Assembly: GCA_964019415.1 (NCBI GenBank)
Contig: OZ025889.1
Span: 3,233,078-3,297,077, forward strand
Direction: 5' to 3'
Source of the DNA: Ianthella basta
Taxonomy: Eukaryota > Porifera > Demospongiae > Verongiida > Ianthellidae
Length of the DNA: 64,000 bases
The notes under the pieces were generated by a model that was not told the origin of the DNA, ran no database searches, and saw only the letters and a list, made by a program, of their open reading frames with translations. Positions 2,746-59,981 of the stretch are shown in pieces. Position 1 is the first letter of the stretch. The number at the start of each line of letters is the position of its first letter. Both the position numbers and the translations under genes were made by a program.

Positions 2746-2764
2746 TGTTGTTTGGAAGCCTTAA

Positions 2765-13679: not shown

Positions 13680-14400
13680 ATGGCTAGTGGTCGGTTGCAG
13701 CCTCCCTCCCCCTTTGAGTTCCGGAATCCAGACGAGCCCGCAGGAAAAGGCGATTTGAACAGTTTCGCCTAGCGTCCGGGCTGTCCTCAGAAGACGACAC
13801 TAGACAGGTCAGTAAAATTTTATATTGCACGGGCGAACATGCGGAAGATACGCTCGCATCTACGGTCATCTCCGTTGCTGATCGTAAGAAGTACCTGAAG
13901 TTGATCGACAAGTTTGACGCCGTTTTCCAAGTCCGAAAGAACATCATCTTTGAACGCGCGCGATTCAATTGACGCGGCCAGGAAGAGGGTGAGTCCGCTG
14001 AACAATACATCACTAGTCTTTACAGTTTTGCCGACAACTGCAACTACGGTGATCTTCAAGACGATCTTATCCGAGATCGTATCGTTGTCGGGATTCGAGA
14101 CGCCTGCAGTTAGACCCAGACTTAACCCTGGAGAAGGCCAAGAAAATAGTGCGCCAACGTGAAGCTGTTCAAGAGCAGCAAGAAATCCTGAAAACTGGTC
14201 CCAAGGAAGAGAAACTGATCGATTCTGTGAGACAGAGAAACCCACCTAGGAGCAATGGTGCCCCACGTCGGCAGCCCAAAGGTAACAAGCAGCACAGGCC
14301 AGCAGCAGCTGCCACAGGAACAACCCGCAAATGTAATACCTGCAAGCGTAAGGGCCACTTCAGTTCGCAATGCAGTGTTTCTTCCAGTTTCACCACAGAA
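13680..14400 (+). pseudogene. gag region of the LTR element, broken
   Basis: Begins at an ATG shortly after the primer-binding site. The first stop comes within about 30 codons and further frame changes follow around 13740-14110. The last part stays open from 14149 and carries basic sequence and a CX2CX4HX4C zinc knuckle (CNTCKRKGHFSSQC, 14334-14375), the RNA-binding end of Gag. Confidence 0.75.
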
Positions 14401-14919
14401 CCTGGAAATGAATACTATGACACTGCATTCCTGAATACCATTGGAGCAGGACACGTCACATCCTGGAGCAGCACTGTAGCAATTAATGGAAGGGAGACTC
14501 AATTCAAGTTGGACACGGGTGCAGAAGTCACCGTCATTTTGGAGGATGTCCTTACCTCTCTGAGTTCTCCCAAGTTGCACAAGGCAACCAAGAGACTGTG
14601 TGGCCCAGATAAGAAGCTACTGGATGTCCTTGGTGAGCTACCGGTGACACTGTCCTACAAGGGCAAGCCGTGTTCTCAGCCAGTCTACGTGGTCAAGGAG
14701 CTCCAGCAAAATTTGCTAGGATTGCCTGCCATTCAAGCACTAAATCTGCTCTCTCAGGTTGATACCCTACAGACGACACCTGTTCTCCAGCAGTTCCCAG
14801 CCTTATTCACTGGCCTTGGCACTATCCAGGATAGCTTTGAAATCAAGCTGAAGCCAGATGCCAAGCCCTATCCTAGTTCACTCCTCGCAATGTCCCCATT
14901 CCAAGAAAGTTCAAGATGA
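14401..14919 (+). pseudogene. Retropepsin-like protease region of the LTR element
   Basis: The open frame continuing from gag contains FKLDTGAEVTVI (14504-14539), the DTGA active-site motif of retroviral-type aspartic proteases, followed by a hydrophobic flap region and linker. The frame ends at 14919, before the RT. Confidence 0.8.
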
Positions 14920-15525
14920 ACTCTCCAGGATGGAATACCTCGGAGTCATCTCACGAGTGGAAGATCCTACACCATGATGTGCCGGCATGGTCGTGGTACC
15001 AAAGAAGTCTGGTTCAGTTCGTATATGTGTGGACTTCAGACCCTTGAATGAGCATGTTCTGCAAGAAGTACACCCCCTGCCCAAGGTTGATGAGACCTTA
15101 GCTCAGCTCACTGGTGCCAAAGTTTTCAGTAAACTTGAGGCTAATTGTGGATTTTGGCAGATTCCTCTAGCTGAAAGTTACCGACATCTCATCACCTTCC
15201 TTACACCATATGGGAGGTATTGTTTCAACAAGCTTCCATTTGGGATCACCAGTGCACCAGAACACTCTCAGAGAAGAATGAGCCAGATCCTTGAAGGCCA
15301 GGAGGGCATTTTGTGCCTCGTTGATGATGTTCTCATCTTTGCACCTACCCAGCAGGAACATGACATTCGACTTCATGCTGCCCTAGCAAAGATTCAGGCA
15401 GCTGGGTTGACCCTCAACAAAGAGAAATGCGAATTCAACAAGGAGCGACTCACATTTCTTGGTCACATGACAAGAATGACAAGAATGGCATCTCAGCAGA
15501 CCCAGAGAAGACATCGGCAATTCTA
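14920..15525 (+). pseudogene. Reverse transcriptase region of the LTR element
   Basis: 14987-15526 contains RICVDFRPLN, FGITSAPE and CLVDDVLIF. The LVDD box carries two catalytic aspartates. The first palm aspartate, normally in an F-S-K-L-D-A type motif, reads Glu here (KLEANCGFWQ). An in-frame stop lies upstream near 14976 (CACCATGATG region), and the frame shifts again near 15470-15530. Confidence 0.85.
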
Positions 15526-16272
15526 GAGATGGAGAAACCCCAGTCACTCCCAGAGTTACGCTGGTTCCTGGGAATGGTCAACCAGCTCAGCAAGTTCAGC
15601 CCAAACGTCGTGGAAGTTTCCAAGCCCCTACGTGAACTCATGAGCACAAAGAAGTTCTGGCTGTGGGGTCCAGCACAAGAGAAAGCATTTCACAAGGTCA
15701 AGCTGGAATTGGCGAGACCTACAGTCCTGGCACTGTATGATCCACAAGTTGACACAAAGATTTGTGCTGATGCTTCAGCCTACAGACTCGGTGCAGTTCC
15801 TCTACAGCAGCACTCCAACTCAGACTGGAAGCCTGTTGCCTATGCATCCAAAGCCCTCAGCGACACAGAAAGAAGACATTCCCAAACCGAGAAAGAGGCT
15901 TTAGCACTTGCATGGGCTTGTGAGAAGTTTGCCAACTATGTCTTGGTAAAGACCATTCACCTGGAAACGAACCACAAACCCCTTGTCCCACTACTCAGCA
16001 GGACCAATCTTGACTCCCTGCCACCACAAGTTCTGAAATTCAGGTTGCACCTTACAAGGTTCTGCTACACAATCAGCCATGTCCCAGGGAAATTTCTTTA
16101 CATGGCAGACGCCCTTTCACGTGCCCCAGTGGCATCTACGGATGGCCTTCAGATCCAGGAGGAGGTACAGAGTTCTTCGCAAGTGCGATTGTTTCCAATT
16201 TGCCAGCCAGCCAAGGGTTGGCCAGACAGACGCAAGATCAAGGGAGATCTATCTCCTTATTGGCAGGTGTGA
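15526..16272 (+). pseudogene. RNase H region of the LTR element
   Basis: The frame open to 16272 carries the connection region (LRWFLGMVNQLSKF) and an RNase H domain: CADASAYRLGAV, the TEKEALAL helix, and the HVPGKFLYMADALSR end motif typical of Ty3/gypsy elements. Confidence 0.85.
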
Positions 16273-33649: not shown

Positions 33650-35455
33650 CATTCTATTTCCCCAGCCTCCTGCTCTTCAATCTTCCACTTATCTGAGGTC
33701 TTAGAAACTGAGGTTCTGAAGAAATTATCCAATTTGGATGTAGGGAAGGCAACAGGTCCTGACAGAATCTCAGCCAGACTTTTGCGCATGGTAGCCCGTC
33801 CATTGCCCAAAGTATTACCTCTCCATTCGATGCAAGCCTCACCACCGGCCAATTTCCATCGAAATGGAAGGAGGAAAATATCACTCCTGTGCCCAAACCG
33901 GGAGGAAAGAGGGACTTCAACAACCTCAGACCAATTTCTGTCCTGCCAGCGCTGGCCAAGGTGCTAGAATCCGTGGTTGCTGGCCAGCTAATTGACTACC
34001 TGGATTCCAATAAGCTCTTGAGTGATGCACAGTCTGGCTTCCGGTCAAAACATTGTACCCAGGATGTTCTGCTAAAGTGTACCGATGACTGGAAGACTGC
34101 CCTTGACAAAGGCAAAGTCGTAGGTACAGTCATGATAGATTTGTCGGAGGCTTTGACTCTATTTGCCACTCTCTCCTCTTCAGGAAGCTGGAAGCCATTG
34201 GAGTATGTGACACTGCTCTTATCTGGTTCACTAGCTATCTAACTGGTCGGAGACAAAGGATCCTCACCCACAGTGCCTGTTCAGAATGGAGACATGTCAC
34301 GACCGGTGTACCACAAGGATCCATCCTGGGGCCTCTCCTCTTCCTGATCTTTGTTAACAATCTACCAGCTGTTGTCCAGCACTGTTCAATCAGCCTTTAT
34401 GCTGATGACACTTCAATCTATGTTAGCAACCTGGACCCTACCACAGTAGGTAAGCTGCTTGAAGAAGACCTAGTGTGTATTTGTGAATGGCTTGAGTGCA
34501 ATGGACTAAAGATAAATGTGGAGAAGACATAGCTGATGGTAATGTGCAGCCACCAAAAAAGCACCAGGAAGACCAGGTAGAAGTGAAGATTGGGAGATCA
34601 GTACTACAGAAGCAGAAGTCTGTTAAGTACCTAAGAGTCACAGTCGACAAACATTTGCGTTGGCATGACCATGTTGACAACATGCAGAAAACGTGCCTAG
34701 GGAAAATTGCAGCCATCAGAAGAGCTAGTTACTATCTCCCAAGCCAGATCAGAAGAACACTCTACCTCTCTCTTGTCCTCCCCCACCTTGAGTACTGTTC
34801 AGTGGTCTGGCACAACTGTGGGGCAACCCTCACCAAGAGAATGGAACGTGTGCAGAACTATGCTCTACACATAACCCTGAACAAGCCCCTCAGAAGCAGC
34901 ACTGAAGAGATGCACAGTCAACTGCCCCTGCCCCCTCTCTCATGCAGAAGGGATATCAGCACGATACTGCAAGTCCGCAGGTGTCTAAGCAGACGTGTCC
35001 CCAACTATCTCTGTAGCAAATTTGTGACAAGAGACTCCATCCTCACCACCTATCTTTCCACCCGTGGGGCGAAAGATCTGCATTTGAAAGCACCACGTAC
35101 TAATTGGTATGAATCTTCATTCGAGTACTTTGGAGCCAAGTTATCCAATGACCTTCCGAATGAAGTAAAGTCCATGAGCTCAGATTCTGCCTTCTATAAG
35201 GCTCTACTCATGCAGCCACTGAGCGTTCACATGCATCCATCTCGGCAACAAAACAGACTGAATATTGATTGATTGACAATGATTTCTGACCACCTCATTA
35301 TTTCCCTTGACAATAATTGCATCTTATTATCCTCTGTCCCGGCCATATTACATGTCCCTCACTCCCCTCATGTTTTGTCTTTGTGTTAAGGTAAATCAGG
35401 ACCTGCATGAAAACCTGCGGCTACACAGATGCAGCACCTCCTGTAGTAAAATAAA

Positions 35456-37464: not shown

Positions 37465-38230
37465 ATGAGTGTGGATTCCAAGACAGACATCCTACAGCTA
37501 CAGTCCGTCGAGAAGGGGCCAACAGGCTACGCATGGGATGGAGAGACTGTGGCTATCCCAACCTCAGAGACTAACAGTAATTACTTGCACCACACCACTA
37601 CAACTACACCACAGCCAAAGGTGTGCCAGTTTTTCCTACAAGGCAAGTGCAAGTTTGGAATCAGATGCCACAATCTCCATCCACTTTCTGACTCTTGTCC
37701 ATCCAAACAGAAGTCTCCTTCAACTGTTAACTGGCTGCAGTGCAAAGAAGCCATGGCCAGCAATGAAGACAGCCACTAATGTCCTCCACAGAATACTCTG
37801 GGACAGTCATCTTCAGTCAGAAATGTTTGTAGTTGGATACCTAGATCGCTTTATTGGGGTTGTGGAATTGCCATTTGAATCATTTAATGGACTCGATAAC
37901 CCATCACTCTTGAGCCACAAGGTACTGGCTATCCCCAAGCACCGCATCCAGTACTTCAAGTACAAGGGTGTGATTGTGTGGGACAAGGCCAACCAGGTGG
38001 ACAATGTGTTTGGGTCCAGGGGCACTGGTAAGACCATCACAGATGTAATGAGGGAAATGGATGGAGAGGCTGTTGGGGAGGTGGGTGAAGAAGAGGAAGA
38101 CGGGGATGAGTTTGAACTTGGTCAAGATGATGGGGAGGCTATTGAGAGAGTGGAAGAAGGTGAGGCAGGTCAAGAGAGATGGCTTGCAAGTGAATTGGAG
38201 CATTATGCCTCTTCCAGTAACGTAGCCTGA
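37465..38230 (+). pseudogene. Truncated paralogue of the RNA-repair gene: CCCH zinc finger and MJ1316 domain, frame broken between them
   Basis: ORF 37465-37779 (104 aa) carries a CX7CX5CX3H zinc finger (KVCQFFLQGKCKFGIRCHNLH at about residues 52-72) and then stops. One frame over, from ATG 37763 to 38230 (155 aa), comes an MJ1316 domain (HRILWDSH, GYLDRFIGVVE, HKVLAIPKHRIQYFKYKG, VIVWDKANQVDNVFG) and an acidic tail ending in TGA. The MJ1316 part is nearly identical in DNA to 48250-48570, so the copy is young or was homogenised by gene conversion. An in-frame stop (37453-37455) lies just before the first ATG. Either a pseudogene, or two small products: an RNA-binding CCCH peptide and a free MJ1316 protein. 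I could not find an intron that repairs the frame. Confidence 0.75.
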
Positions 38231-39168
38231 AGCAACAATTTGGTGATACCCATGGTGATCAGTGAATTGTCCAGAAGTTCTGCGGCCACTTTGAACACTG
38301 CATGTAAAGTAATTCAGAATTAATTTTTCACTGGTTATGTGGTAACTAGTTAACTAGGAATGGGACATTTGTACATGGATTAGAGTTTAATTGCTGTACA
38401 TTTATTTAGATCTAGAGTTTTCAGCCACACTGCATGGGGAATTCTGATCATTGTATAAATAGCAATATATATTTATGTATGTATAGCCACCAAAAATGTA
38501 TGTGTTGATTTATGCCCATGTACACATAGAAATTGTCAGCTAGTGAATTGAAGGCCACAATCACTCTAGAGACATAATCTTGGCTCAATATGTCAATTTA
38601 ATACATGCATGAGGTATAGTATTATGGACTGCATGACTGTCTTCATTCTATTCCACAAGTTGAAGTATAATAGTGGTGCACATGCACATTATGATCATGA
38701 ATAGGTATACAATCCTATACAATAGCCCATATATATTCTAATGTCTGAGGCAGTAGTTGGCCGGTACATGCACAGCCACAGTGATGGTTGTCAAAAGGTA
38801 GTAGCTGACTAGGTACGTATGCAGCTAGTGGTACTACCACCTCATTTCATTCCCATGTACATTTACCTTCAGCTAGTGCATGTCCCAGCGACTATCACAA
38901 TGTCTGATTAGCTATGGCTATGTATCTTCTCCAAGGAATCTGTCTCCCAGTGGTCTCTAGCTGTAACATGCACGCCACATGCTACCAAAGACAGGAATTG
39001 AAATACTGTGCAGTTGTGTCTAAACCAATAAATGCACAAGTTTCTAGCTAGCTAGCTAGCTACCCCAAGAAATTGCAAAGTTAGTGGGTTGCAGAAAGTC
39101 TGGATTTGGGCTGGAGAGCAATGTAGCAACAAAAGGCAACTTGCACAAGGGTATGAAATGGTAAAGGT
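38231..39168. other. Intergenic, AT-rich, no gene seen
   Basis: Follows the truncated paralogue. It contains several TATATATTTATGTATGTAT-like stretches and an AGCTAGCTAGCT run at 39047-39062. Confidence 0.6.
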
Positions 39169-39340
39169 GTGTATGCCCTTTGCCCATCTGGCTTATAAGC
39201 TTTGTGCACTCGAAAGTATGCTCTGCAGTTTGTCTGCAGGGGTTGTGCGCTCTAGCGATGACGTCAGTCACCAAAATAGTAGGCAGGCATTGAGCAAGTA
39301 TTGTACATGTGCAGTCTATGGTGCAAGCACTTATTGCTAA
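39169..39340. repeat. Copy of the sequence upstream of the RNA-repair gene
   Basis: Matches 44812-44975 over about 170 bp with few differences (GTGTGTATGCCCTTTGC, CTCTGCAGTTTGTCTGC, GCGATGACGTCAGTCACC). It lies between the truncated paralogue and the full gene, so it looks like a rearranged piece of a duplicated locus. Confidence 0.75.
39259..39266. promoter_or_regulatory. CRE-like site TGACGTCA (upstream copy)
   Basis: Perfect ATF/CREB palindrome inside the duplicated segment. Confidence 0.4.
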
Positions 39341-40591: not shown

Positions 40592-42337
40592 AGTATGGGT
40601 GTGTACAGGTACAGGTAAGAGCCGTCCCTACTGTTTTTGGGGATAACATTGTTGAATCTGCTGAAGGGGTGCAGCAGGGAGATCTGCTGGGCCCCCTCCT
40701 TTTTAGTCTCACTGTTCACCCCATTCTGAAGACGTTGAAGTCTGAGCTCAGGATTTTCTATCTTGATGACGGCACTATGGGGGGGAAACTTGAAGATGTC
40801 ACAGGTGACCTCAAGACGATGGAGCAAATGGGTGGGGCGTTAGGCCTTGTTCTCAACCACTCCAAGTCTGAGGTGATCTGTGCGGATGAACACACTCGAC
40901 AATCTATCTTGGCTGTATCACCCCACCTTCAATGCACAGACCAAGCAGATGCTTGCCTTCGTGGGTCACCCATTGGGGGGCCCGCAGAGCATCACCAAAG
41001 TGCTGTCCTCCTAGAAACAGTCATTGGAGCTAATGGGAGAGCGGCTGAAGCTCCTCCATTCCCATGATGCCCTATGCCTTTTGAAGAATGCGTTAGCTCT
41101 CCCCAAGATTTTGTATGTCCTTCGCTCTGCCCCATGCTTCTCTTGTTCCATCTTGGCCAAGCTGGACAGGCTTCAGAGATCTTTTTTGGAGGCTATCTGC
41201 AATGTTACCTTGAGCGATGTGGCCTGGTCTCAAGCCTCCCTGCCTACCCAGGCAGGGGGTCTCAGCATTAGGAAGTTTACCATGCTGGCTACCTCTGCAT
41301 TTCTCGCATCAGCTGCTAGTTCTGCTTCCTTGACGGGGAGGATTTTGCCACCAACATTTGCAGATACAGTTTGCCCCTTCAGAGCAGAAGCTCTTTCCTT
41401 GTGGTCTCAGGACCACACAGAAGAGCCCGTCTGGTTGCAATGCCACGAAGCAACGGGCTTGGGATGCCCCACTCATCGAGTCAGCCGTGACCTCTCTCCT
41501 CTCCTTGGCAGATGATGCTTCCAAGGGCCGCCTGCTGGCGTCAATGAGAAAGGAGTCTGGTGCTTGGCTTTCTGCGCCTCCTGTATCATCCCTCGGCCTC
41601 CAGATGGACGATGACACTGTGAGGATTGTTGTTGGTTTGCGACCAGGATCCCCGTTATGTACACCACACCAGTGTACCCTATGTGGGGGCCAGATGGATG
41701 CATCTGGTACCCATGGGTTGCATTGCAGAAGAAGTGCGGGCCGACACCTCAGACATATTGCCCTCAGCCATCTGGTGAAAACATCCCTCGCATCCATCGA
41801 CATACCAACCATCCTGGAACCCCCAGGCCTTTTTTGGTCTGATGGGAAGCACGTGGATGGTGTGACAATAGTCCCCTGGAAATCTGGCTGTGCCTTGGCT
41901 TGGAATGTCACGTGTAGCGACATCTTTGCCCCTACCTATCTATCCCTGGCCTCCTCGGGTGCCGGTAGGGTAGCAAACCTAGCCGAGACTAGGAAGAAAC
42001 ATCTGTATCAAGAAATAGAGCCTACTCACCATTTCATCCCTATTGCCATTGAGACATCCGGCGTTTTTGGCGATGAAGCTTTAGCTTTTTTCAAGGAATT
42101 AGGGTACCGCCTTAGATCTAAGACTCAAGACTCACAATCCTTTCACCAGATTTGTCAACGTATTAGTGTATGCATGCAAAGATTTAATTCCGTTTCTATT
42201 CTGGGCTCTAGTGCCACATAGGTTTTTCTATAGTATGTAATTGTATAGTGACTCTTTTCTGTGTACATGTCCTGTTGAATAGTTAGGCTATAGTATTTTT
42301 GCTGTAGGTACTTCACTTACCTGTACACACCCATACT
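40592..42337 (+). mobile_element. RT fragment enclosed by 19-bp perfect inverted repeats
   Basis: AGTATGGGTGTGTACAGGT at 40592-40610 recurs as its exact complement at 42319-42337. Between them lies a 5'-truncated reverse transcriptase pseudogene. No target duplication was identified outside the repeats. Whether the inverted repeats are ends of a mobile unit or coincide with a captured fragment is open. Confidence 0.5.
40660..42221 (+). pseudogene. Non-LTR reverse transcriptase, C-terminal two thirds, with possible restriction-like endonuclease domain
   Basis: Three overlapping frames (40669-41067, 41024-41515, 41358-42221) together read as one protein. GVQQGDLLGPLLFSLTVHP and RIFYLDDGTMGG (the Y-x-D-D catalytic box) come first, then a thumb/connection region (LVLNHSKSEVICADEH; RLKLLHSHDALCLL). 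The C-terminal domain has a CX2C..H-type finger (CTLCGGQ..GTHGLHCRRS) followed by SDGKHVDGVTIVPW..WNVTCSD. The finger followed by a D-G / W-x-V-T pattern recalls the endonuclease end of restriction-like-endonuclease LINEs; that part is inference. Two frame shifts (near 41000 and 41440) inactivate it. Confidence 0.8.
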
Positions 42338-43513: not shown

Positions 43514-43812
43514 GTATTTAGCCAGCAATCTTCGGTCGGCTACGCTATGTACACTCAGTCGGGGCACTTCTTACCTTCGTATACCACTTTCACAGGAGTG
43601 GAAACGCCTGGTTCTTCTCTATTGGTGCTCAACAGTCAATGCGTTATAAGGGGATAGTCTATCCCAAGGTGGGCTACTATATCCTAGGAAATTTCAACCC
43701 ACCGGATAGTTTAAACTACCCGGGGGGGATACTTTATACGGGGGATACTATAAACTGTGACACCGGAAAAGCCTTGAGGAGAAAGGGAAAAGCGTAACAA
43801 CGGAAAGATCAA

Positions 43813-44813
43813 ATGGCTGGATCTATTAAGGAAGAAAGATCCTCATTTCACCTTGCAAGGCATTATAAAAAGAGGAAGAACGGCATTGTAAAAAGACGTA
43901 ATTTGCAGGGCAGATTTCTGCAAGTAGTCCCTGTCGAGTATTTCCACAATGTTCTAAGCAGATTCCACAGAAGCGGACTGGGTGGTAGCCACAGCGGTTA
44001 CCAGAAGATATACGATCAGGTGAAAAAGCAATATTCTGGTATACCTAGAATTGCTGTGCAAGCATTCACAAATGTATGTCATGTTTGCCAAATTCAACGC
44101 AAGGCACAGATATCTAAAGCCCCGTTAAACCCTATTGTGACCAAGAATTTCTTGCACAGAGTTCAAATTGACTTAGTGAACATGACTACCAGTATTTTGC
44201 ACATGTTGTGGATCATGCTATGAAACTGCATGTTCTTTTCCCTTTGAAAAGTAAGGAAGCCAAAGAAGTCGCAGATCAGTTTGCTATCAGTTTTCTGGCT
44301 TATTTTGGACCTCCTGTCATTCTTCAATCGGATAATGGAGGGAAATTTGTTAATAGGCCGTGGCTATTGGTCCGGTACCCAGCTCAGCAAAATTATATAA
44401 AATCAACCCCTAACCCTAACCCTAACCCTAACCCTAATACTAAATAATTTATACAGGGTATAATATCGCAACCTACGGTGTTGTTTTATACCATTTTACT
44501 GAGTTGGCTGCCGGAGCAATAGCCACTTCGTTGTTAATAACATTTTGACTGACATGGCGAAGGATTGGTGCAGAGTGGTTACGACTATAGCTAAAGGTAT
44601 GGAGACAGAATTTGTGCATGGAAGACCTCGCCATCCACAATCCCAGGGTTGCGTGGAGCAAGGCAATAGGGTTGTAAAGCAGCATTTGGCTGCTTTCACA
44701 AAAGGGACGTTTAATGAATGGTAATCTTTTCTGCTCAAGGAGATGCTTGCTATGAATTCTTCAATATCAGCTGCTACGGGATATAGTCCTTACCGCTTAG
44801 TGTTTGGGCAGGA
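43813..44813 (+). pseudogene. Integrase (H2C2 zinc region and DDE core), decayed and MITE-interrupted
   Basis: 43813-44223: zinc region (EYFHNVLSRFHRSGLGGSHS..ending CHVCQ), then RVQIDLVNM with the first catalytic Asp; a frame change follows. 44208 onward: HVLFPLKSKEAKEVADQF, LQSDNGGKFVN (second Asp). A 176-bp MITE (44355-44530) then splits the core. After it come GRPRHPQSQGCVEQGNRVVK (catalytic Glu), NEW and a stop, and SSISAATGYSPYRLVFGQEV. This is the integrase type found in Ginger transposons and gypsy-like elements. The coding homology stops at about 44811, where the duplicated promoter-like segment begins. Confidence 0.82.
44355..44530. mobile_element. 176-bp hAT-like MITE containing telomeric repeats
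   Basis: Flanked by the perfect 8-bp repeat TTGTTAAT (44347-44354, 44531-44538). About 43 bp at each end are inverted copies (GTGGCTATTGGTCCGG.. against ..CCGGAGCAATAGCCAC). The centre holds CCCTAA units at 44406-44437. Removing the element rejoins the integrase frame around FVN, which supports insertion. Confidence 0.82.
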
Positions 44814-45208
44814 GGTGTGTATGCCCTTTGCACATCCGGCTTTGTGCACTCGAAACTATGCTCTGCAGTTTGTCTGCGGGGGTTGCGCGCTCTAGCGATG
44901 ACGTCAGTCACCAAAATAGTAGGCAGGCATTGAGCAAGTATTGTGCAATCAATGGTGCAAGTACTTATATACGATGACTTGCAGTACCGCACACGAGAAG
45001 CCCTCAACCAGTTCCCAGTGAGAGGGCCCTGAAAGGAGAGTCCGAAACACCACCAAGGAGCACCGTTTAGACGTTAGTTGTGCTGTCTACCTGCTAGAGT
45101 AGTCGTGTTCGCTCTGCCCTGCCGCGTGCCGCTCGACTGTCGATGTGTTGTCGAATCGTGTTGTCCTCTTTCCTTCCATGCTCTTTAGATTGCTGCAGTG
45201 TCAGTCAG
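44812..45208 (+). promoter_or_regulatory. Promoter and 5' leader of the RNA-repair gene
   Basis: The segment directly upstream of exon 1. It holds a perfect CRE TGACGTCA at 44899-44906 and a TATA-like TTATATAC at about 44964. The part 44812-44975 is duplicated at 39169-39340. The transcription start is not visible; the position relative to the ATG (about 200-300 bp) is the only further support. Confidence 0.45.
44899..44906. promoter_or_regulatory. CRE-like site TGACGTCA
   Basis: Perfect palindromic ATF/CREB site about 300 bp before the start codon of the RNA-repair gene. Confidence 0.45.
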
Positions 45209-45347
45209 ATGGAGGTTGAAGAAGAAGTAGAAACTCTACGGGCAATTGTCGGCGAGGAGAATGTTTCCTATGACAGCTTGTGTCGGACCGTCTCAGTGCG
45301 ATACACAGACCTGCTGGACGGACTACAGGTCGTCTACATTCTACCGG
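45209..45347 (+). CDS. RNA-repair multidomain protein, exon 1 (N-terminal half of RWD domain)
   Basis: ATG at 45209 encodes 46 codons and one base up to the donor GTGAGC (phase 1). The peptide starts MEVEEEVETLRAIVGEE and ends LQVVYILP. This is the first helix and beta strands of an RWD domain (E-x2-x-L-x-A-I pattern). The matching acceptor at 47601 adds A-D-YPDVAP, and Y-P-x3-P is the hallmark turn of RWD domains, so the join is strongly supported by homology and phase. RWD domains are protein-protein interaction modules (GCN2, RWDD and RING proteins), and here the domain probably tethers the enzyme to a partner. Confidence 0.85.
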
Positions 45348-47601
45348 GTGAGCATGGGGAATGTTAACTGGTGCCAAGTATCAGGCTATTTCTGCCTTTT
45401 ACTTCATTGTACATGCGCCATTTTATGGCAGATCTTGCTGCGGAAGTTGTATGTGGGTGTTGGTAGAAGGCCTGGCTGTATGCATGTGACAAAGAAGCTC
45501 ATTAAAGCTGCTGCTGTAATGAAGACATAAATTGTACTAGTTTGGTATCTTGTGATCTAATTATACATCATAATTTGATATTTCCAGCATTATGATGATT
45601 AGATTATACATTGAAACCTATCTAAGACAGCCACCTATGTGCCAGTTATAATTGGCCTTTATAGAGAGGTGGCTGCATTACGGAGGTAGACTGCAACATT
45701 TTTGTGTTGTTTGTGCCAGTTGCATGGGGTCAGCGAGGCTGGCTGTTCTAGAGAGGTGGCTGCCTTATACAGTGACCATCTTAGACAGGTTCCACTGTAT
45801 TTGCAGGGTGTATAGGAATACAATAATTTCACCTATTAGTGAATGATCACCTCGTATGGTTTTCAGCACAATCACTGGACTGCTCCTTCCACAGGAGTAT
45901 AATTACTGGCAAGGGAAGACAATGAAATTTAGTGTATATGACAGATATAACTTTTCATTATGCATCCATGGTGATGGCACCGAGGGCACAGTTGGACGAC
46001 TGCCAGAGAATTTGCTTTCTTTCCTTCCTCTGGCAGTTCCCAATCCACACTGTGACATAACATGAGTTCTCTCCAGAAGGCAACACCTTTTTCAGTTGCC
46101 TTGACCTCATGAAACTAGTTCCAAGAATAGAAGACACAGCAGTGCTGTAAGCAGAAGAAGCCAAACTATTGAACCAAACTCAATTATTCAAATACCTTGA
46201 AAAGCTGTAGGCTTGTTAACGAATTTCAATTTCAAGTACTGCATTATGTTTACTGAACATTCTCAATTTCACCTTGGATAAATCAGCCTATTGGATAGTA
46301 TCAATGGCAACATTGAAGACAGTTTGTTTGTTCTTTCAATAAATCGATTCAACAGTGAAGGAATTGGCACTTTGAAAATTACTGCTTGAATTGCAACAAG
46401 CCAGTTTTGACATGACCACGAGGGTGCTTAGCTTATTTATAGTCCTCGTGGCCATGCTAAGCATATTACTTAAATTATCACATGAATAATGTGATGCCAT
46501 ATTCATGTCTGCTTAGTTTACATTACGGGTGTGCAATTATCAAATTAGCGGTATCATGATTATTGCCAATTATTCCTTATAAGGTATCGCGATTAATCGA
46601 TTAATTGGCTATTGCGATAGACATACGTAGCAATGTCCCTTGCACATCATGATGAATCCCACAGAATGAATGCTATGAGTTTATGTTGATGCAAATTAAT
46701 TGCAACTTCTCAATGAAGAAGCATACCATGGAAGCATTCACTGATAAAAGACAGGTGCTATTAAAAAGAACGCCAGACTATTGCATGCGAGCACTAATAG
46801 CAATGCCTATTTCACACCTCACTACAGCGCATATGACTTATATGAACAGATGTGCGCTAGGCAGAAGTGAAAACCTAGTTCGCTAAGTGTATGATACGAA
46901 TAACAGGCTCTGCTACCAACTTACGTGGCTGCGATCTGTGGATGATTTCATTCTCCAGACGGAATCTGAAGAAGTATCATGCATTGCTGCTACAGTTCTT
47001 TAGGATAGGTAAATATGCTCTTCAAACCAGGCCCATTTGTGCTCGTCCATTTGGAAGCAAAGAACAGCCTTTCACAACGGTTTTGCACTTCCAATAAACA
47101 TGCATTACGTCACAACTACACTTGTGGAATTGATCAATTAGGGATTTCTTAATCAACCGATCGATCACTTTATAGGTTTACCTTGATAAACAGAAATTGA
47201 AACAATGTGGTAAAGAGATGCCCATATTCATCTAACCCTATTCTTGCTATAGTATTGTGACTCCATATTCTGCTCATTCCTAAGCACTCACGTCTATCAC
47301 TAAAACCAGTGATGATGTAATTGGTGTATGCGTTGGGCTCTTGTTACGTAGGTAGCCAAGAACTTGCTACATGTGTAGTGAAGGTGACAAACACTTTTAC
47401 AAGTGGCTGTGTGCATGCCTCACCTACAGACTCTACATGTGAATGTACTGAACGGTGGCCGGCCATATTTGACCTGTAATCCCACATTCACACAGTACAT
47501 TGAGGAGTCCTGTGTCCAATGATGCATGTATAAAAGTTTACATAGCACAAAGGCAGAAGAAGGTGCTTGTATCTGACAACCTCCTTCCTCCCTCTCCACA
47601 G
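45348..47601 (+). other. Intron 1 of the RNA-repair gene
   Basis: 2254 bp, donor GTGAGC, acceptor CTCTCCACAG after a pyrimidine tract. It contains a MITE at 45607-45799 and otherwise AT-rich non-coding sequence. Confidence 0.8.
45607..45799. mobile_element. MITE of the CAGTGGAACCTGTCTAAGA family, copy 1
   Basis: Inverted ends TTGAAACCTATCTAAGACAG and TCTTAGACAGGTTCCACTGTA. Inner GAGAGGTGGCTGC blocks recur in inverse at 57548-57716. TA-flanked, probably Tc1/mariner-derived. Confidence 0.65.
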
Positions 47602-50600
47602 CTGACTACCCTGATGTGGCACCCTCTGTTGCCTGTTCTCTTCCTGGCATGGACCTGCCACTCCTTAGGAAACACCTGGAAGCAGAGGCCAAGGATTGCC
47701 TGGGGACACCAATGATTTATCAGCTGGTCCAGAGCACTCAGGATTGGCTGATCCAGCATGTTGCACAGAAAGCATCGCTTGAAACAGAAGCTTGCCAAAG
47801 ATCTGCCACAAAGGAGGATCAAACTGACTCTTCCAGTGTGAGTGTACATCACAAGGCGGATGCTGTGCAGTTGGCAGTGAAAGGCCCTACTGGTAACATG
47901 GGGAAGGGGGGAAGGTCGGCTGGAGTGACGGGGCAGGGGAGGATGAAGGTCAACCAGTCAGCACCCTTAGCTGAGGCTACACCACCACAACCAAAGGTGT
48001 GTTCCTTCTTTTTGAAAGGAAAGTGCAAGTTTGGAGACAAGTGCCACAATCTTCATCAGAAGCCAGGGACACAACCAGCTGCTAGGAAATGTGAGACCTC
48101 CCTGTATGATGAGATGTTAGCGAAGACAGGCGCCTCCAGCCCACCAATGTCTTCAGTGGACACTACAAATGAAGATGAAACTTTCACCGAAGACGTGGAA
48201 ACTTCAAGTGATTTTACTGTAAGTGAACCTGGTGGGAAGAAGGTATCTATGAAGACAGCCACCAATGTCATCCACCGGATCCTCTGGGACAGCCATCTTC
48301 CCTCAGAACACTTTTTAGTTGGTTACTTGGACAGGTTTGTTGGGATTATTGAGAAACCGTTTAAATCCTTCAGCTGGGAGGACCTTTCCGCTGTGAGCCA
48401 CAAAGTACTGGCTATCCCTAAGCACCGCATTCAGTACTTCAAGTACAAGGGTGTGATTGTGTGGGACAAGGCCAACCAGGTGGACAATGTATTCGGGTCC
48501 AGGGGCACTGGGAAGACCATCACAGATGTAATGAGGGAAATGGATGGAGAGGCTGCTGGGGAGGTGAGAGAAGAAGAGGAAGCCGTGGATGAGGATGAGC
48601 TTGATCCAGAAGATGTAGAAGAGATGGAAAGACAGTCAAAGATGGGAGTTTTGAAGCAGAAGGCTGACAAGAATAGGCCCACCCATTTCATTTACATCCC
48701 TGTGTTCCAGTCAAAGGAGATTGTCGCTAAAGCAAAGGAGGTCCAGGACCACATGGTAGAAATTCACCCTTGTTTTGATGATGGCCGCCTTCCACTGGAG
48801 AACCTCCATGTGAGTGTGGGCTATGTCAGATTGGAGAAGCAGGAGGAATGTGAGCGTGCCACAGAAGTCTTGAAGAAGCTGCAGCCCTACTTTGCCACCA
48901 TCTTACCTCCAAGCATGGTGCTGCACTCTGAAGGAATGGAAACATTCAGGGGACAGCTGATCTATGCCAAAGTGAGAGGCTGTCCAGCACTGCAACGCTT
49001 TGTGACCCTCTTACTGAACAGCCTGCAGTCAGCAGGCCTGAGTACACCTGGGAACCATATACCATTTGTGCCGCATATCACTGTGCTACGTCTGCGCCGG
49101 CCAATGATGAGGGAAATGAACATGCAGATGATTGAGAGCTGGATGTACCAGCCCTTCAAGAGTGCTGCTTTCGGTGAGCAGGCCATCCAAGAACTGCGCA
49201 TAGGAGAAATGTCTGACATCTACATCAGGCACAGGTTCCGTATCTCCAACAGTGCACTATGTCTCTCACCTGCACTGCCACCACTTGTCTGTCAGTCAGC
49301 GCAGCGTCTTCATGAGCTTGGCATGGTGACATCAGAATCACTCTCAGAAGTGAACAAAGTCATTGGTAAATACCAAGCTGGAGAAGAAGAAGTTTGCTCT
49401 AAAGCTGAGCGAGCCACTGAAAACATCAGGAAACAGCAGAAGAAGGTTCTGGATGGGAAGTGCAAGAGACTTTCACCGGAAGAGATAGCAAAGGTGCTGA
49501 ATCCAACCCTTGTTGTCATTTTGCGGGGGCTACCTGGAAGTGGTAAGTCATGGCTAGCCCATAACTGTGAGGAGACTCTAAAGGCACCATCATCTGTGGC
49601 TATTTGCAGTGCAGACGATCACTTTCTCGACCACAAAAGTGGAGAATACCACTTTGATTTGGATGCCCTTCCACAGGCTCACCAATCTTGCCTGATGCAG
49701 TTTATTCAAGCACTGCAGAGTGGCAAGCAGCTTGTCATTGTGGACAATACCAATGCTCAACTCTGGGAGTACCAGATTTACAGGTATCTGGCACAGCTGG
49801 TAGGCCTGAAGAGCTGTGTGCTTGAGATACAGTGCCTTGATGAAAGAATGGCTGAACTCTTTGCTTCCAGAAACCAACACAAGGTCCCAACAGAAACTGC
49901 TCTGAAACGGTATGCACAATGGGAGAAGGATGAATTAGCCATTGTTCTTCCTCCTTCAGTTGTGAGCCCGTACCAGCATACTATTCCTGGAAACTTCTCC
50001 TTATGCAGCCTAGGCCAAGGTGAACAGCAGCTGTTGGCAGAGGTAAGAGAAAACGGGTACCCTGTCTCAGTAATGTACACTGGCATTTACCTTGACTGTG
50101 AATCACAGTGGTCTTTGGTTGAAACAATTCATCCCATTCATCCAATGGTCTATGCCAACCATGTCACCATCGTTTACCACCCAACACTGAGCCAAGTGGC
50201 CACACTTTCCCTGGGCGAGGAGGTTCAGGTGGTGCCCGTGGGCTGGGCCACCAATAATGATGTTCAGGCATTGGCCGTTAAAGTTCCCGAGTCCATCAAA
50301 GTTGCTAACAAGTGCCCGCACATAACCATCAGTACAGAGCGTGGGGTGTCTGCAAAGTACTCAAATGACCTGCTGGAGAGCAACCCAACCCTAGCTATGG
50401 TGCCACCAGGAGCACTGCAGCTGAAGGGGCGGGTGGGGATGGTGATCGAGGTAGGTCAATCTCTGGACAAACGGCAGCCTCAGAAGACTTTCCATATTTT
50501 CAGTAAGGAGGACTTCCAGTCTATTCTTCCCTTTTTGGTGGATCACACACCAGTTAGAGATACAGAGGCTGCGAGTGTTTCAGGTGTCCAACTGCCGGCA

Positions 50601-52712
50601 TGGACAAATGACTCGGTGGTGTCGCCAGATGATGTTGGCATTGTGTCTGGAAAGCAGAAGATCACTAAGCTGTTCCTCTTTGACTTTGATGGCACTTTGT
50701 TCCACACCCCTGATCCAGTGGAAGGCAGAGCAGAGTATAAGAGACTGACGGGTCACAGCTGGCCACATCCTCATGGCTGGATGAGATGGGCGGAGTCTCT
50801 CCTCCCTCCTCTCAGGAGCCAGCCTGGCCCGGCACTCCCCCACTTCCATGAATGCTTCCACCAAAGTGGTAGCCTTACTGTGCTAGTCACTGGACGGATT
50901 CCTCCCACAAGCAATGCAGTGAAGGAGGTACTTCACCACCACCTTGTCTACCCTGAGAAGTACTTCTTCAAAGACAGCCCTATGGAGAAGGAGAGCACTC
51001 CTGCCTACAAGGTTCGTATCATACAGCAGCTCCTGAGGGAATACCCAGATGTGAATCATGTCAAGGTGTTTGATGACCTTGATGATGTTCTAACAGCAAT
51101 GAACAAACTAGCCCGCAACTATCAGGACAGGATTAGGTTTGAAGTCATAGATGCAAAGGGGATGGGAACCTCTTCCACTGGAAAGCTGCAGAAGGCTGTG
51201 CTGAACACAACCAGCAAGGAAGGTGCAATTGCATCTCTCCTACATCAATGTGGTCTCCTCCCCATGCCTTCGTATCAGGGTGCAGCAGCAGCAGGTGTGG
51301 CTCTGATAGCCTCCCAATGGGCAGCGGCAGTACACTTCTCTGGTCCATCTGACCATCTTGTGATGACCTTTGGTTCCTACTGTCTTGGAAGGAGGGGAGA
51401 TGTGGACTTGTGTCTCCTAGCTCCTCCACAACTCTCCCATTTTGAGTGCCTTGATCTCCTGGCTTTCCGGCTTCAGGATGCAGGGACAGTGTTTGTCCAT
51501 CGAGGCTATGCCTCTCGCTGTCCTCGTTTGAAGGTCATGCTGCAGTACAGCAGTGTCCCAGACATCAATTTTGACATCATCTTCATTGTCACAGCAAGTG
51601 AAGACTTCTACTACAAGACACTTCCTGGTGTGAAGCCAACCTGTGCCTCCATCAAGTCTGAGTTGGCACCAGGAGATGCACCAAGCAAGACAGCCCTGAT
51701 GGGGCCTCTCTTTCTTCAGCAAGTGCAGAGCAGGATTGAGGGCAGAATAGTGAAAGCTGAGTTTGCAATGGCAGTGGAAATGGTAGTGTGGTATCTGAAG
51801 TCTCAGCGGTTGAAGGGGAATGCCTGCTCCTGCATCAGGACCTTCCACGTGGTCCAGTTGCTTGCAGACGTGGCAAGTAAGGTGAAAGACAGTGAGTGGG
51901 AGGAGCTCCCCTCAAAGGCAGACTACCTGTTTAGTAGGTTCATCACCAAAGTAGCTAGCTTGGAAGAGGACAAGTGGTTGCATCTTCTTGGGGATAAAGG
52001 TAGTCAGGAAATAGGAGAAAGGGGGACCACTGAGAAAATGAATAGAGTACCACTGCAGTACATCCCAGCCCTGCAAGCTACCTTTAAGCGTGCTCACTCA
52101 ATCCTTGGCACTGGCAGTGAGTCCACCCAGTCCACTCTTCAAGTGGAAGCACTCTGCGATCTACTTCAAAGACCTGCTCACCCACCACTTGGATTCACCC
52201 CAGTAGCTTTGAAATTTGGGAGTCTGGACAAGAAGTTGGAGTGGGAGCTGTCCACCATCTTGGAAGCTCGCATGCCCACATACATCCATCAGCTTATCAC
52301 GAAGGGAGTCAGTGTTCATCCCAGTGGTAATGACATGGAAGCAGGCTACATTGCCTTTGCTGTGAAGGATGATCCATCGACTGTTGAGACAGTGCAGTCC
52401 ACGTTGAAGCCACTCTGGAATGAAGTTGCTGTGTACAGGAAGCACCCTGAAGTAGATATAGGCCTCTTTATAGGACAGACTGATGTACATCACTTGTCAA
52501 CACCTGGCTCCAATGTTCTAGAGCAGGTCAGGAGCTTTGCAGCATCTAGCAGTGCAGAACCTGGAGGTGTGGCTTTGGAACTCCACCTCCCCAGCTCACT
52601 GACCAGCTATGAGCGCTGGCAGGTCCACGAGGCTGCAGAGTCGCTGGGACTAAGCCATGTCAGCACGGGAGAAGGAAAGGACAGGCACATTGTGCTGCAG
52701 AAGTGCTCATAA
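47602..52712 (+). CDS. RNA-repair multidomain protein, exon 2 (1703 codons): CCCH, MJ1316, 2H, kinase, 2H, HAD, nucleotidyltransferase, R3H
   Basis: With exon 1 the product is 1749 aa. Domains in full-length numbering: RWD 1 to about 96 (YPDVAP 49-54). CCCH finger C180/C188/C194/H198. MJ1316-type RNA cyclic-end recognition domain 263-348. Acidic linker. AKAP7/LENG9-like 2H phosphoesterase about 404-596, motifs H449-V-S and H538-I-T. P-loop kinase 681-826 of NEDD4BP2/polynucleotide-kinase type, Walker A GLPGSGKS 689-696 and VDNTN 760-764. Second 2H domain about 851-1001, H900-V-T and H953-I-T, like tRNA-ligase cyclic phosphodiesterases. HAD phosphatase 1066-1241, DFDGT from D1074, TGR 1143-1145, DD 1204-1205. 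PAP-like nucleotidyltransferase from about 1291, G1304-S1305, D1313, D1315, D1371. R3H 1701-1749, R1718-x3-H1722. CCCH+MJ1316+2H is the LENG9 core. All visible catalytic motifs are intact. The inferred role is sensing and healing of cleaved RNA ends, then tailing; no ligase is seen. Confidence 0.93.
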
Positions 52713-57719: not shown

Positions 57720-58895
57720 GTGCATGCAGGCTGACCTGTCCAGGATATGGTTCAGAGACGACTAGATGAGGGAGTATGTAGCTGAGAGCATTGACTGCAT
57801 GGGTTAAGGTATGCATGATGTCAGCTCAAACATGCTCACTCATGCACTAGGACAACAAATGCCTATCATTCTTGTACTGATATGTGTGTATATCCTTTAT
57901 AGTAAATAGTGCATGATAGCAGGGATGTGTTACTGGCAGTCTGTCCATGTAGTGATCCAAGTGAACCTGTTGTGAACCTGTGAGCCTGTTGTGTAGTGGT
58001 AGACTGCAATGTGTAGTACAGACTGCTAGACTCTTATGTACATGACAAGAGATGAGTAACCTGTATCTATTTAAAGCTTTGATGATTGCAGTCTGTGTCC
58101 TATTCCAATCAGTGAATTATTCTTACGTACTTGCTGTTCATGCGTTGCACATTGGAGTTATAACAGTCCATTACCGAGAGAGTTAACAGGAACATGGGAA
58201 GTGGAGGATCAGTGATGTTTGCTGCTCACTACATGAGTGCTCAAAACATCTCACCAGAGACTTAAGGAAGACAAAATTTTATTTCTCCGGCATTGATGTG
58301 TCACTCTTAATTAATGGTGCTGAATTGTCTGTTGTCATCGCTCTCCAATATGGTAAGTGTTGCCTCCGGAATGTCCACACACACATGGTGAAAGATCCAT
58401 AGCACACTGTAAAAAGAATGTTTTTGAGTCTTCTTTCCTTTCATTTATACTAGCCTTACATGCATGTGTTTAACCATATTAGAGATCCCTTTCAGGCTAC
58501 TGAGAGTGATTGTTAATGTGATGTGAATGAACATCAGTGGCCAGGGGTGGGTTTGAGCAGAAGTTAATATGATAGCTATCATCATGCACTGCAATATCAA
58601 CACAATTTCCATCTCTCAAGGATGAAGACAACCAGATATGTAGTGGAGACTGCATGTGTACATGCTATCAACATAGATACTGTAAAAGGTAAAAGGATCT
58701 TTTATCCAACAAGTTGAGCACGCATTTCCGGGTGAGGTTCCGCAGGAAGTCAACGCATAGAGAGATGGTTAATATATGACAGGCGCGCATAGACACACTG
58801 GACTCCTAAAGAAATGTGCTGTACAACAGTGAATATTGCCAAGTTAGATAGTTTGCAAGTTGGCTTTGGAGTATTTGCTATAGGACCTTGTGGGT
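57720..58895. other. Intergenic and probable promoter of the glycosyltransferase-like gene
   Basis: No ORF with domain features. The last 200 bp before 58896 have no clear TATA box. A GCACGCATTTCCGGGTGAGG block with the ETS-like core TTCCGG lies at about 58719-58736. Confidence 0.45.
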
Positions 58896-59981
58896 ATGGC
58901 CGTGCCAAGTGCTAGACACCTCAGTAATGCACGCGGTTTGCTACTCTGCAGCGCAACAGCCGCAGCCATCATGCTGGGAATGTACTTCTTAAGCGCCGCC
59001 TACCCGAGGACCATGATCCTTCGACCTACCAGTCCTGTCAGCAATAGTACGGACTGGGGTGGTAAACAAGCATCGGTTCGTCTGGTGGATCGCGATGTTC
59101 CATCCGACGTCACATTCGACAGTGAGGCCGTTGAAACGCAGTCTCCCCACTCAGTGAACGATCGTGGCTCTGATGTCGGGCAGAACAAAACCAAGTTTCC
59201 AAGCCAGTCCAGCACTACCGCTGTCGCTAACGAAGCGCCCCCAGCAGTCAAGCCTGCACCTCCCGTGAGTATTCATCTGGTGATCGTGTTATTTACAACC
59301 ACCTCCAACGATACTAAGCTCCGCCTTCGCCAGCAGGAGCACGCGACAGTTCTGCAAAGGAACCTGAAGCACTCCCTGATCAACAGCGTGTACATCATGA
59401 CTGCAAACAAAACGGACATGGAAGAGTACCTTCGTGGACTAGAGCTACCAAACAGGCACAAAGTCAATGTTGTTGAGAGTGAACAATGGGATGTGATGCG
59501 AGGAGTCTTCCAGTACATATCAGATAACCTGGTTGGGAAGGATGCAATGTATGCCAATGGAGACATGTACTTGGGGAGTGGGTTTGAGAAGGTGGATGCA
59601 AATGTGTTTCGTGGTAGCAATATCTTCTACTCTCTGAGCCGTCTAGGCAAACAGGAGGAGGCATGCAAAATGGAAGATTTCTGTGGCGGCGACATCAAGT
59701 ACATTGGAGCCCACGATGTGTTCTTCTTTCACTTGAAAGAGCCAATTCCAGAAGAAGCCCTGAAAGTGCTAGATTTTAAGATTTGGGCCTATGGAGCAGA
59801 GAATCTACTAATGGGAGTGTTCACTAAAATGTTACATTACTGTACGCTTAACCCATGCAAGATCCTAGAAACCTACCATCTTCATTGCTCAGGAGCACGT
59901 CGTAGTGACAGAGTAAGAGTTAATAAGCATTCTGAATACAATGGACGATCTCCCTTCACCTCTAACCTGACTTGTCATTGA
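58896..59981 (+). CDS. Type II membrane glycosyltransferase-like protein, single exon
   Basis: ATG 58896 gives 361 aa. Residues about 14-34 are one hydrophobic span (LLLCSATAAAIMLGMYFL) after a short basic start, so a type II signal-anchor protein, probably Golgi. A Ser/Thr-rich stem follows to about 125, then a globular domain beginning HLVIVLFTTTSNDTKLR. YANGDMYL (219-226) sits where GT-A enzymes carry the metal-binding N-x-D / D-x-D motif. AHDVFFFHL, WAYGAENLLMGVF and NPCKILETYHLHCSGAR are blocks shared with uncharacterised eukaryotic glycosyltransferase-like proteins. Five N-glycosylation sequons are present. Donor sugar and acceptor cannot be told from sequence. The in-frame GTG six bases upstream is not used as the start. 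Confidence 0.82.
   Translation: MAVPSARHLSNARGLLLCSATAAAIMLGMYFLSAAYPRTMILRPTSPVSNSTDWGGKQASVRLVDRDVPSDVTFDSEAVETQSPHSVNDRGSDVGQNKTKFPSQSSTTAVANEAPPAVKPAPPVSIHLVIVLFTTTSNDTKLRLRQQEHATVLQRNLKHSLINSVYIMTANKTDMEEYLRGLELPNRHKVNVVESEQWDVMRGVFQYISDNLVGKDAMYANGDMYLGSGFEKVDANVFRGSNIFYSLSRLGKQEEACKMEDFCGGDIKYIGAHDVFFFHLKEPIPEEALKVLDFKIWAYGAENLLMGVFTKMLHYCTLNPCKILETYHLHCSGARRSDRVRVNKHSEYNGRSPFTSNLTCH

What the first reader, a model, noticed from the sequence alone, without database searches (positions are those of the whole stretch)
45209..52712. Nine-domain RNA-repair protein in one polypeptide
The 1749-residue product combines RWD, CCCH, MJ1316 (RNA cyclic-end recognition), AKAP7/LENG9-type 2H, polynucleotide-kinase-like P-loop, a second 2H phosphodiesterase, HAD phosphatase, PAP-like nucleotidyltransferase and R3H. 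Each catalytic motif is visible (H-x-S/T pairs, GLPGSGKS, DFDGT, G-S..D-x-D..D). LENG9 in vertebrates has only CCCH, MJ1316 and 2H, so this looks like the full-length version from which LENG9 is a remnant, or a lineage-specific fusion. It suggests an animal system that recognises 2',3'-cyclic phosphate ends left by RNases and processes both ends.
Basis: partly seen in the sequence, partly recalled or inferred. Interest (0 to 1): 0.92.

Follow-up and report, generated by a model that had tools for sequence, protein, structure and literature searches.

The report
Multi-enzyme RNA-end repair protein
One very long protein appears to carry the tools needed to clean up both ends of a broken RNA; it belongs to an ancient, already named group of RNA-repair proteins, and the short vertebrate protein LENG9 looks like a cut-down descendant of it.

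Summary
A two-exon gene (45209-45347, 47602-52712) encodes 1749 residues: RWD, CCCH, MJ1316, AKAP7-type 2H, polynucleotide-kinase-like P-loop, a second (tRNA-ligase-CPD-like) 2H, HAD phosphatase, PAP/TUTase-like nucleotidyltransferase, R3H. The nucleotidyltransferase is the weakest call: Pfam misses it in this protein; weak family-profile scores and an invariant D..D..D triad support it. It is no lineage-specific oddity: 91 other proteins align over at least 90% of the searched part, and simpler forms occur in a cryptophyte and oomycetes. Catalytic residues are essentially invariant over 100 aligned sequences. Pfam already names the kind 'Swiss Army Knife RNA repair proteins'. LENG9-type short proteins form one clade among long ones, supporting the 'remnant' idea. 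New lead: the relative in Aphanomyces euteiches carries an RNA ligase at its C-terminus, and this genome encodes a related ligase as a separate gene. Best reading: an RNA end-healing enzyme whose products suit a 5'-phosphate/3'-hydroxyl ligase in trans. No activity has been tested. The paper that probably described the family could not be read here.

The parts
45209..45347 (+). Exon 1: start codon and first half of the RWD domain
   Evidence: GT donor at 45348; join with 47602 restores the frame and the RWD (E 3.1e-12); relatives such as P0006 and P0009 have a similar N-terminus in one frame
45348..47601 (+). Intron interrupting the RWD domain
   Evidence: GT..AG borders
47602..52712 (+). Exon 2: rest of the RWD and all other domains, with stop codon
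   Evidence: Lies in the open frame 47577-52712
48000..48056 (+). CCCH zinc finger, C180-x7-C188-x5-C194-x3-H198
   Evidence: zf-CCCH 20.4 bits, cut-off 20.5; ligands conserved
48249..48470 (+). [quoted passage not shown]
   Evidence: Pfam E 2.5e-25; genome scan
48678..49211 (+). First 2H phosphoesterase (AKAP7/LENG9 type), H449-x-S and H538-x-T
   Evidence: AKAP7_NLS E 4.3e-24; both histidines 100 of 100 rows; AKAP18 structure, profile E 3.9e-38
49512..49898 (+). Polynucleotide-kinase-like P-loop domain GLPGSGKS, with K695 and D718
   Evidence: AAA_33 E 2.7e-9; profile hits Pnkp1 9e-6 and a polynucleotide kinase 0.0085, but also other P-loop enzymes in between; K695 and D718 100 of 100
50064..50492 (+). 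Second 2H domain, tRNA-ligase CPD-like, H900-x-T and H953-x-T
   Evidence: tRNA_lig_CPD 9.5e-7 on the cut-out piece, 4 of 9 members at E up to 10; histidines 99 of 99 non-gap rows; no solved 2H structure found by sequence
50652..51128 (+). HAD phosphatase (HAD_SAK_1), DFDGT, T1143, K1183, D1205
   Evidence: PF10307 E 4.6e-8, 27 of 28 members at E 0.1; D1074 and D1076 99 of 99 non-gap rows
51246..52142 (+). PAP/TUTase-like nucleotidyltransferase, FGS..D1313-x-D1315..D1371
   Evidence: Profile against PDB: CutA, URT1, Pla1, pol lambda (best E 0.024); MTPAP-like palm in 3 of 9; triad 98 of 98 non-gap rows
52578..52703 (+). R3H domain
   Evidence: Pfam E 2.5e-11; SMUBP-2 R3H structure, profile E 1.1e-8

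Best explanation
The gene encodes a full-length 'Swiss Army Knife' RNA repair protein, the long form from which the LENG9 family derives. Inferred mechanism: RWD, CCCH and R3H bring it to ribosome-linked or damaged RNA. MJ1316 binds a 2',3'-cyclic-phosphate end left by a metal-independent RNase. The second 2H (tRNA-ligase CPD-like) opens the cyclic phosphate, the HAD removes the remaining phosphate to give 3'-OH, and the kinase phosphorylates the 5'-OH. The AKAP7-type 2H probably cuts 2',5'-linked or other terminal RNA phosphodiesters. The PAP/TUTase-like domain adds nucleotides to a healed 3' end, to restore or tag it. The healed ends (5'-P, 3'-OH) suit a classical ATP-dependent RNA ligase, which is part of the relative's chain in Aphanomyces euteiches and is a separate gene in this genome. 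Shown: gene structure, domain order, conserved active sites, a ligase domain in one relative, a separate related ligase gene here. Inferred: every activity, the substrate, the order of steps and the partnership.
For: Domains, with 99 relatives aligned over them and the families found in most of 28 members scanned. Catalytic residues of the five enzyme domains: first 2H 100 of 100 rows, kinase 100 of 100, second 2H 99 of 99, HAD 99 of 99, nucleotidyltransferase triad 98 of 98 non-gap rows. The second 2H is matched by tRNA_lig_CPD and follows a kinase; in yeast and plant tRNA ligases CPD and kinase heal such ends (PMC3400036 passages). RNA_ligase PF09414 (5.6e-32) at the C-terminus of the A. euteiches relative P0100, a cluster of 7 sequences on 5 contigs. 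The own genome has a PF09414 gene (1.4e-25) matching that ligase at 43% over 187 and 53% over 57 aligned positions (E 2e-52); it reads as 260 residues with the ligase motifs in order. MJ1316 as a reader of RNA 2',3'-cyclic ends is stated in PMC6514570 (passage).
Against: The nucleotidyltransferase rests on weak scores. Besides polynucleotide kinases, the kinase region's profile hits seryl-tRNA(Sec) kinase (3e-5), SRP/FtsY GTPases (from 8e-5) and PFKFB (from 2.5e-4), so sequence alone does not single out RNA 5'-OH as substrate. The second-2H and HAD profiles found no convincing solved structure, and the 53 residues between the second-2H histidines is short for this fold (recalled). The ligase domain is seen in one cluster of gene models; the A. 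invadans relative P0101 ends before it, so merged neighbouring genes are possible. RtcB and a Tpt1-family gene are also present; RtcB seals cyclic-phosphate/5'-OH ends directly, so healing is not the only route. P0099 lacks the second 2H.
Confidence: 0.6

Rival explanations
1. End tagging for decay rather than repair: the protein cleans a cleaved 3' end and the TUTase-like domain tails it, so the fragment is degraded; no ligation follows.
For: Best-scoring solved nucleotidyltransferases are CutA and URT1, tailing enzymes, though at E 0.024-0.026 only; no ligase in the same chain here; R3H and CCCH are general RNA binders.
Against: A 5'-OH kinase is of little use for 3' tagging (it could feed 5'-3' decay); ligase domain in the A. 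euteiches relative.
Confidence: 0.2
2. 2',5'-oligoadenylate switch-off enzyme: the AKAP7-type 2H is the main activity and degrades 2-5A; the other domains clean its cyclic-phosphate products and RNA cut by a 2-5A-triggered nuclease.
For: AKAP7 and an oyster 2H enzyme cleave 2',5'-bonds and leave 2',3'-cyclic phosphate (PMC8406329 passages); two sponge species make 2-5A (PMC2852836 abstract).
Against: OAS1_C was not found in this genome, though no control genome rang either; it does not explain kinase and ligase; the family also exists in oomycetes and a cryptophyte.
Confidence: 0.1
3. Dedicated tRNA splicing or tRNA repair healing enzyme, a Trl1 substitute working with the separate ligase and the Tpt1-like protein.
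For: Kinase-CPD module as in Trl1; Tpt1-family gene present; [quoted passage not shown]
Against: An RtcB gene is present, as used for canonical animal tRNA splicing; a HAD phosphatase would be superfluous beside Tpt1; MJ1316, RWD and R3H suggest a damage role.
Confidence: 0.15
4. Gene-model artefact: several adjacent genes read as one.
For: Only genomic sequence is at hand for this species.
Against: One stop-free exon of about 1703 codons; 91 relatives aligned over at least 90% of the searched part and transcript-like contigs.
Confidence: 0.02

Closest known systems
Swiss Army Knife (SAK) RNA repair proteins (Pfam PF10307; source paper recalled as Burroughs and Aravind 2016, which PMC6514570 cites for MJ1316 fusions)
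   Same: HAD_SAK_1 domain over cut-off; MJ1316, 2H, kinase and nucleotidyltransferase-like parts in one chain
   Different: The paper could not be read, so whether this nine-domain form is in it is unknown; no ligase in the chain here
LENG9 (leukocyte receptor cluster member 9)
   Same: CCCH, MJ1316 and AKAP7-type 2H in the same order; many molluscan forms and the Saccoglossus one also have RWD
   Different: The listed LENG9-type proteins show no kinase, HAD or R3H family
Fungal/plant tRNA ligase Trl1 (LIG-KIN-CPD)
   Same: Kinase followed by a CPD-type 2H
   Different: No ligase domain; a HAD domain; extra recognition domains
Aphanomyces euteiches protein P0100
   Same: RWD, MJ1316, 2H and kinase by Pfam; second 2H, HAD and nucleotidyltransferase motifs in order by alignment
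   Different: Ends in an RNA_ligase domain; no CCCH or R3H hit
PNKP and bacterial Pnkp
   Same: Kinase plus phosphatase healing logic
   Different: Different order and far below the PNK-3'Pase cut-off (15.6 against 502.8 bits)

Membership tests
SAK RNA repair proteins | HAD_SAK_1 domain | tested here: met
   33.5 bits, cut-off 25.6; 27 of 28 members at E 0.1 or better
SAK RNA repair proteins | several RNA-end-processing domains in one chain | tested here: met
   by sequence only
SAK RNA repair proteins | definition given in the 2016 paper | not tested
   paper not held
SAK RNA repair proteins | demonstrated RNA repair activity | not testable with these tools
   needs biochemistry
LENG9 family | CCCH, MJ1316 and AKAP7_NLS in this order | tested here: met
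   (CCCH at 20.4 bits, cut-off 20.5); N-terminal piece finds named LENG9 proteins
LENG9 family | groups with LENG9 rather than outside it | tested here: inconclusive
   LENG9-type clade is nested among long proteins; the window protein lies with other long ones
Trl1-type tRNA ligase | CPD domain | tested here: met
   PF08302 25.2 bits, cut-off 23
Trl1-type tRNA ligase | RNA ligase domain in the same chain | tested here: not met
   no RNA ligase family among the hits at E up to 10
Canonical poly(A) polymerase | PAP central domain | tested here: not met
   no PF04928 hit; the genome's matches to that family are on C20
Nucleotidyltransferase superfamily (PAP/TUTase-like) | G-S..D-x-D..D triad and fold | tested here: inconclusive
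   triad 98 of 98 non-gap rows, weak profile scores, fold not predicted
PNKP 3'-phosphatase/5'-kinase | TIGR01663 equivalog cut-off | tested here: not met
   15.6 against 502.8 bits

The most novel reading that the evidence does not exclude
Early-branching animals keep a complete ribosome-linked RNA repair pathway. The RWD docks the protein on GCN1 at stalled ribosomes; MJ1316 captures the cyclic-phosphate end of the cut RNA; the two 2H domains, HAD and kinase heal both ends; the terminal transferase restores lost 3' nucleotides; and the separate C23 ligase, part of the same chain in an oomycete, seals. Bilaterians lost the catalytic half and kept LENG9 as a relict sensor/phosphodiesterase.
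Probability: 0.2. Interest if true: 0.85.

Novelty: new member of a known kind. Interest (0 to 1): 0.55.

Why it matters
In the listings no title or abstract start dealt with what LENG9 does biochemically (of the papers listed there I opened only PMC9635633, PMC6514570 and PMC7765460, by passages). [quoted passage not shown] A conserved long form with candidate enzymes for every healing step, plus a separate ligase of the kind joined to it elsewhere, gives LENG9 an evolutionary origin and makes animal RNA healing and sealing directly testable with two recombinant proteins.

Tried and rejected
Lineage-specific fusion: rejected by relatives in other eukaryotes. Separate genes misread as one: made unlikely by relatives on transcript-like contigs. 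OAS or canonical PAP identity of the nucleotidyltransferase: no matching Pfam hit. Short paralogues: proteins P0204, P0221 and P0224-P0226 looked like CCCH-MJ1316-only forms, but reading them showed chains that break off inside the 2H, as unspliced exon pieces would. A free-standing C-terminal half: one search returned 1 protein among 7996 scored candidates, but it also missed P0090, which is of eligible length and has the HAD, so absence is not shown. Grouping Nematostella with the other rows that I take for cnidarian was not rejected (p-AU 0.279; the group was named after seeing a tree), so whether the truncation predates the cnidarian-bilaterian split is open. Bilaterian long forms: no named bilaterian among the 91; three named bilaterian hits (P0105-P0107) are NEDD4-binding-protein-2-like or futsch-like and cover 9-11% of the query; one search scored only 7987 candidates, so absence is not shown. 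In the trees P0099 is labelled 'Rhodosorus' by my mistake; the taxid in its name is Rhodomonas lens, a cryptophyte. The species of the window was not established. In one search three of the four CCCH positions were mis-set; one search gives the right ones, and that script then stopped on an error after printing them. mis-set the frame of the second copy's CCCH part; searches show it rightly.
Full report
Observation. Exon 1 (45209-45347) and exon 2 (47602-52712) join to 1749 residues across a 2.25-kb GT..AG intron; exon 2 lies in a frame open for 1711 codons. Pfam places RWD, MJ1316, AKAP7_NLS, AAA_33, HAD_SAK_1, tRNA_lig_CPD and R3H above their cut-offs, with the CCCH finger just below. The nucleotidyltransferase has no Pfam hit in this protein.

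The weak domains. For the nucleotidyltransferase I aligned nine family members. Against solved structures 36 sequences match up to E 10: 34 are nucleotidyltransferases by name (CutA, two URT1, two Pla1, three further poly(A) polymerases, Cid1 and 25 DNA polymerase lambda sequences), one is an Mnt-type antidote and one a glutaredoxin; the best E is 0.024, so the strength is in the agreement and not in any one score. MTPAP-like palm hits 3 of 9 members (best 1.1e-5). This supports a PAP/TUTase-like enzyme but not a closer name. The second 2H is matched by the fungal tRNA ligase CPD model in 4 of 9 cut-out pieces and in 18 of 28 long members at E 0.1; its profile found one PDB sequence, a tautomerase at E 1. 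The HAD profile found three weak hits, the best a vegetative storage protein at E 0.14. The kinase region's profile hits Pnkp1 (9e-6) and a polynucleotide kinase (0.0085), but also seryl-tRNA(Sec) kinase, SRP-type GTPases and PFKFB.

Conservation. I aligned 100 sequences: the window protein and P0003-P0101, leaving out P0002 (the window's own protein without exon 1) and P0102-P0107. Catalytic residues: first 2H H449 and H538, 100 of 100; kinase K695 and D718, 100 of 100; second 2H H900 and H953, 99 of 99 non-gap (P0099 lacks the domain); HAD D1074, D1076 and D1205, 99 of 99 non-gap (P0097 lacks the first two positions); nucleotidyltransferase D1313, D1315 and D1371, 98 of 98 non-gap (P0090 and P0097 lack the region). 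Five enzyme domains kept intact over this range are unlikely to be decoration.

Distribution and LENG9. One search gave 106 hits, one of them the window's own P0002; 91 of the other 105 cover at least 90% of the searched part. Organisms named by a source or by taxid include Hydra vulgaris, Geodia barretti, Aphanomyces euteiches, Aphanomyces invadans and Rhodomonas lens; Ephydatia, Clytia and a choanoflagellate are my inference from identifier styles. A search with the N-terminal piece gave 172 hits, 120 listed, with LENG9 in vertebrates and RWD-bearing LENG9-like proteins in molluscs and Saccoglossus. In a tree of the MJ1316 and first 2H region with 49 rows picked by hand (27 long, 22 short), 19 short rows, bilaterian where named plus Nematostella, form one clade (98/92, bootstrap not fully settled); three other short rows fall among long ones and may be gene-model fragments. 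With four rows removed (P0102, P0168, P0121, P0108) the clade has 18 rows at 96/91. Because the oomycete, cryptophyte, sponge and hydrozoan forms in the tree are long, loss is simpler than repeated gain. Nematostella's place is unsure (p-AU 0.279).

A sealing partner. No RNA ligase family hits the window protein. The A. euteiches relative P0100 (7 sequences, 5 contigs) carries RNA_ligase PF09414 at residues 1452-1616 (5.6e-32), and P0103, related through its kinase, carries RNA_lig_T4_1, an exonuclease and R3H. The window's own genome has a PF09414 gene at C23:276791-277165 (1.4e-25). It matches the P0100 ligase over two exons (43% of 187 and 53% of 57 aligned positions, E 2e-52) and, joined at GTAGGT..TTAG across an 82-base intron, reads as 260 residues with KVDGANLG, LFGEWLYA, FLAFDLYD, EGVYLR and KVVR in order (their standing as ligase motifs is recalled). 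No solved structure matched its first exon at E 0.01. A second PF09414 match lies on C7 (4e-11, one stop inside). RtcB and Tpt1-family matches are also present. PF09511 and OAS1_C gave no match, but no control genome rang either, so absence is not shown.

Mechanism. In yeast and plant tRNA ligases a CPD opens the cyclic phosphate and a kinase phosphorylates the 5'-OH before sealing (PMC3400036 passages). AKAP7-type 2H enzymes cut 2',5' bonds and leave cyclic phosphate (PMC8406329 passages). MJ1316 is described as recognising RNA 2',3'-cyclic ends (PMC6514570 passage). GCN1 binds ribosomes and several RWD proteins (PMC10931611 passages); the term LENG9 does not occur in that paper's main text. 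Putting these together, I propose end healing of cyclic-phosphate/5'-OH breaks followed by sealing in trans. Every step in this protein is inferred. The role of the first 2H and of the terminal transferase is the least certain.

Known or new. Pfam's own name for PF10307 shows the kind is known. The paper behind it, which I recall as Burroughs and Aravind 2016, is not held. Searches for LENG9, MJ1316, Swiss Army Knife and PF10307 terms listed 30 of 43, 20 of 36, 40 of 64 and 1 of 1 papers, and I saw no functional study of LENG9 or of a long animal form among those titles; that covers only this library. I file it as a new member of a known kind. What I add is the conservation count, the LENG9 placement and the ligase pair; whether these are already in print is not settled.

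Noticed in passing
window 37465-38230: A second, partial copy: CCCH and MJ1316 parts in different frames. The MJ1316 part is 84% identical in DNA (372 b) and about 78% in protein to the main gene; dN 0.13, dS 0.58 over 127 codons, so it may still be constrained.
   Followed up: partly
window 43798-44760: Integrase-like retroelement remnant, by eye from the open frames, directly upstream of exon 1.
   Followed up: no
window 44813-44968 and 39165-39334: An 87% identical repeat lies just upstream of exon 1 and downstream of the partial second copy.
   Followed up: no
window 809-2760, 14053-16272, 33763-35272, 40594-42221: Reverse-transcriptase or gag-pol-like open frames by eye, not searched; the neighbourhood looks rich in retroelements.
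   Followed up: no
window 58884-59981: A 365-residue open frame with a hydrophobic N-terminal stretch, not identified.
   Followed up: no
L016 (own genome C23, near 276791-277165): Free-standing two-exon RNA ligase gene, 260 residues, homologous to the ligase at the end of the Aphanomyces euteiches relative.
   Followed up: yes
P0103: Another multi-domain protein: RNA_lig_T4_1, NT5C-like HAD (below cut-off), exonuclease, R3H, kinase and a possible primase-polymerase (below cut-off); organism unknown.
   Followed up: partly
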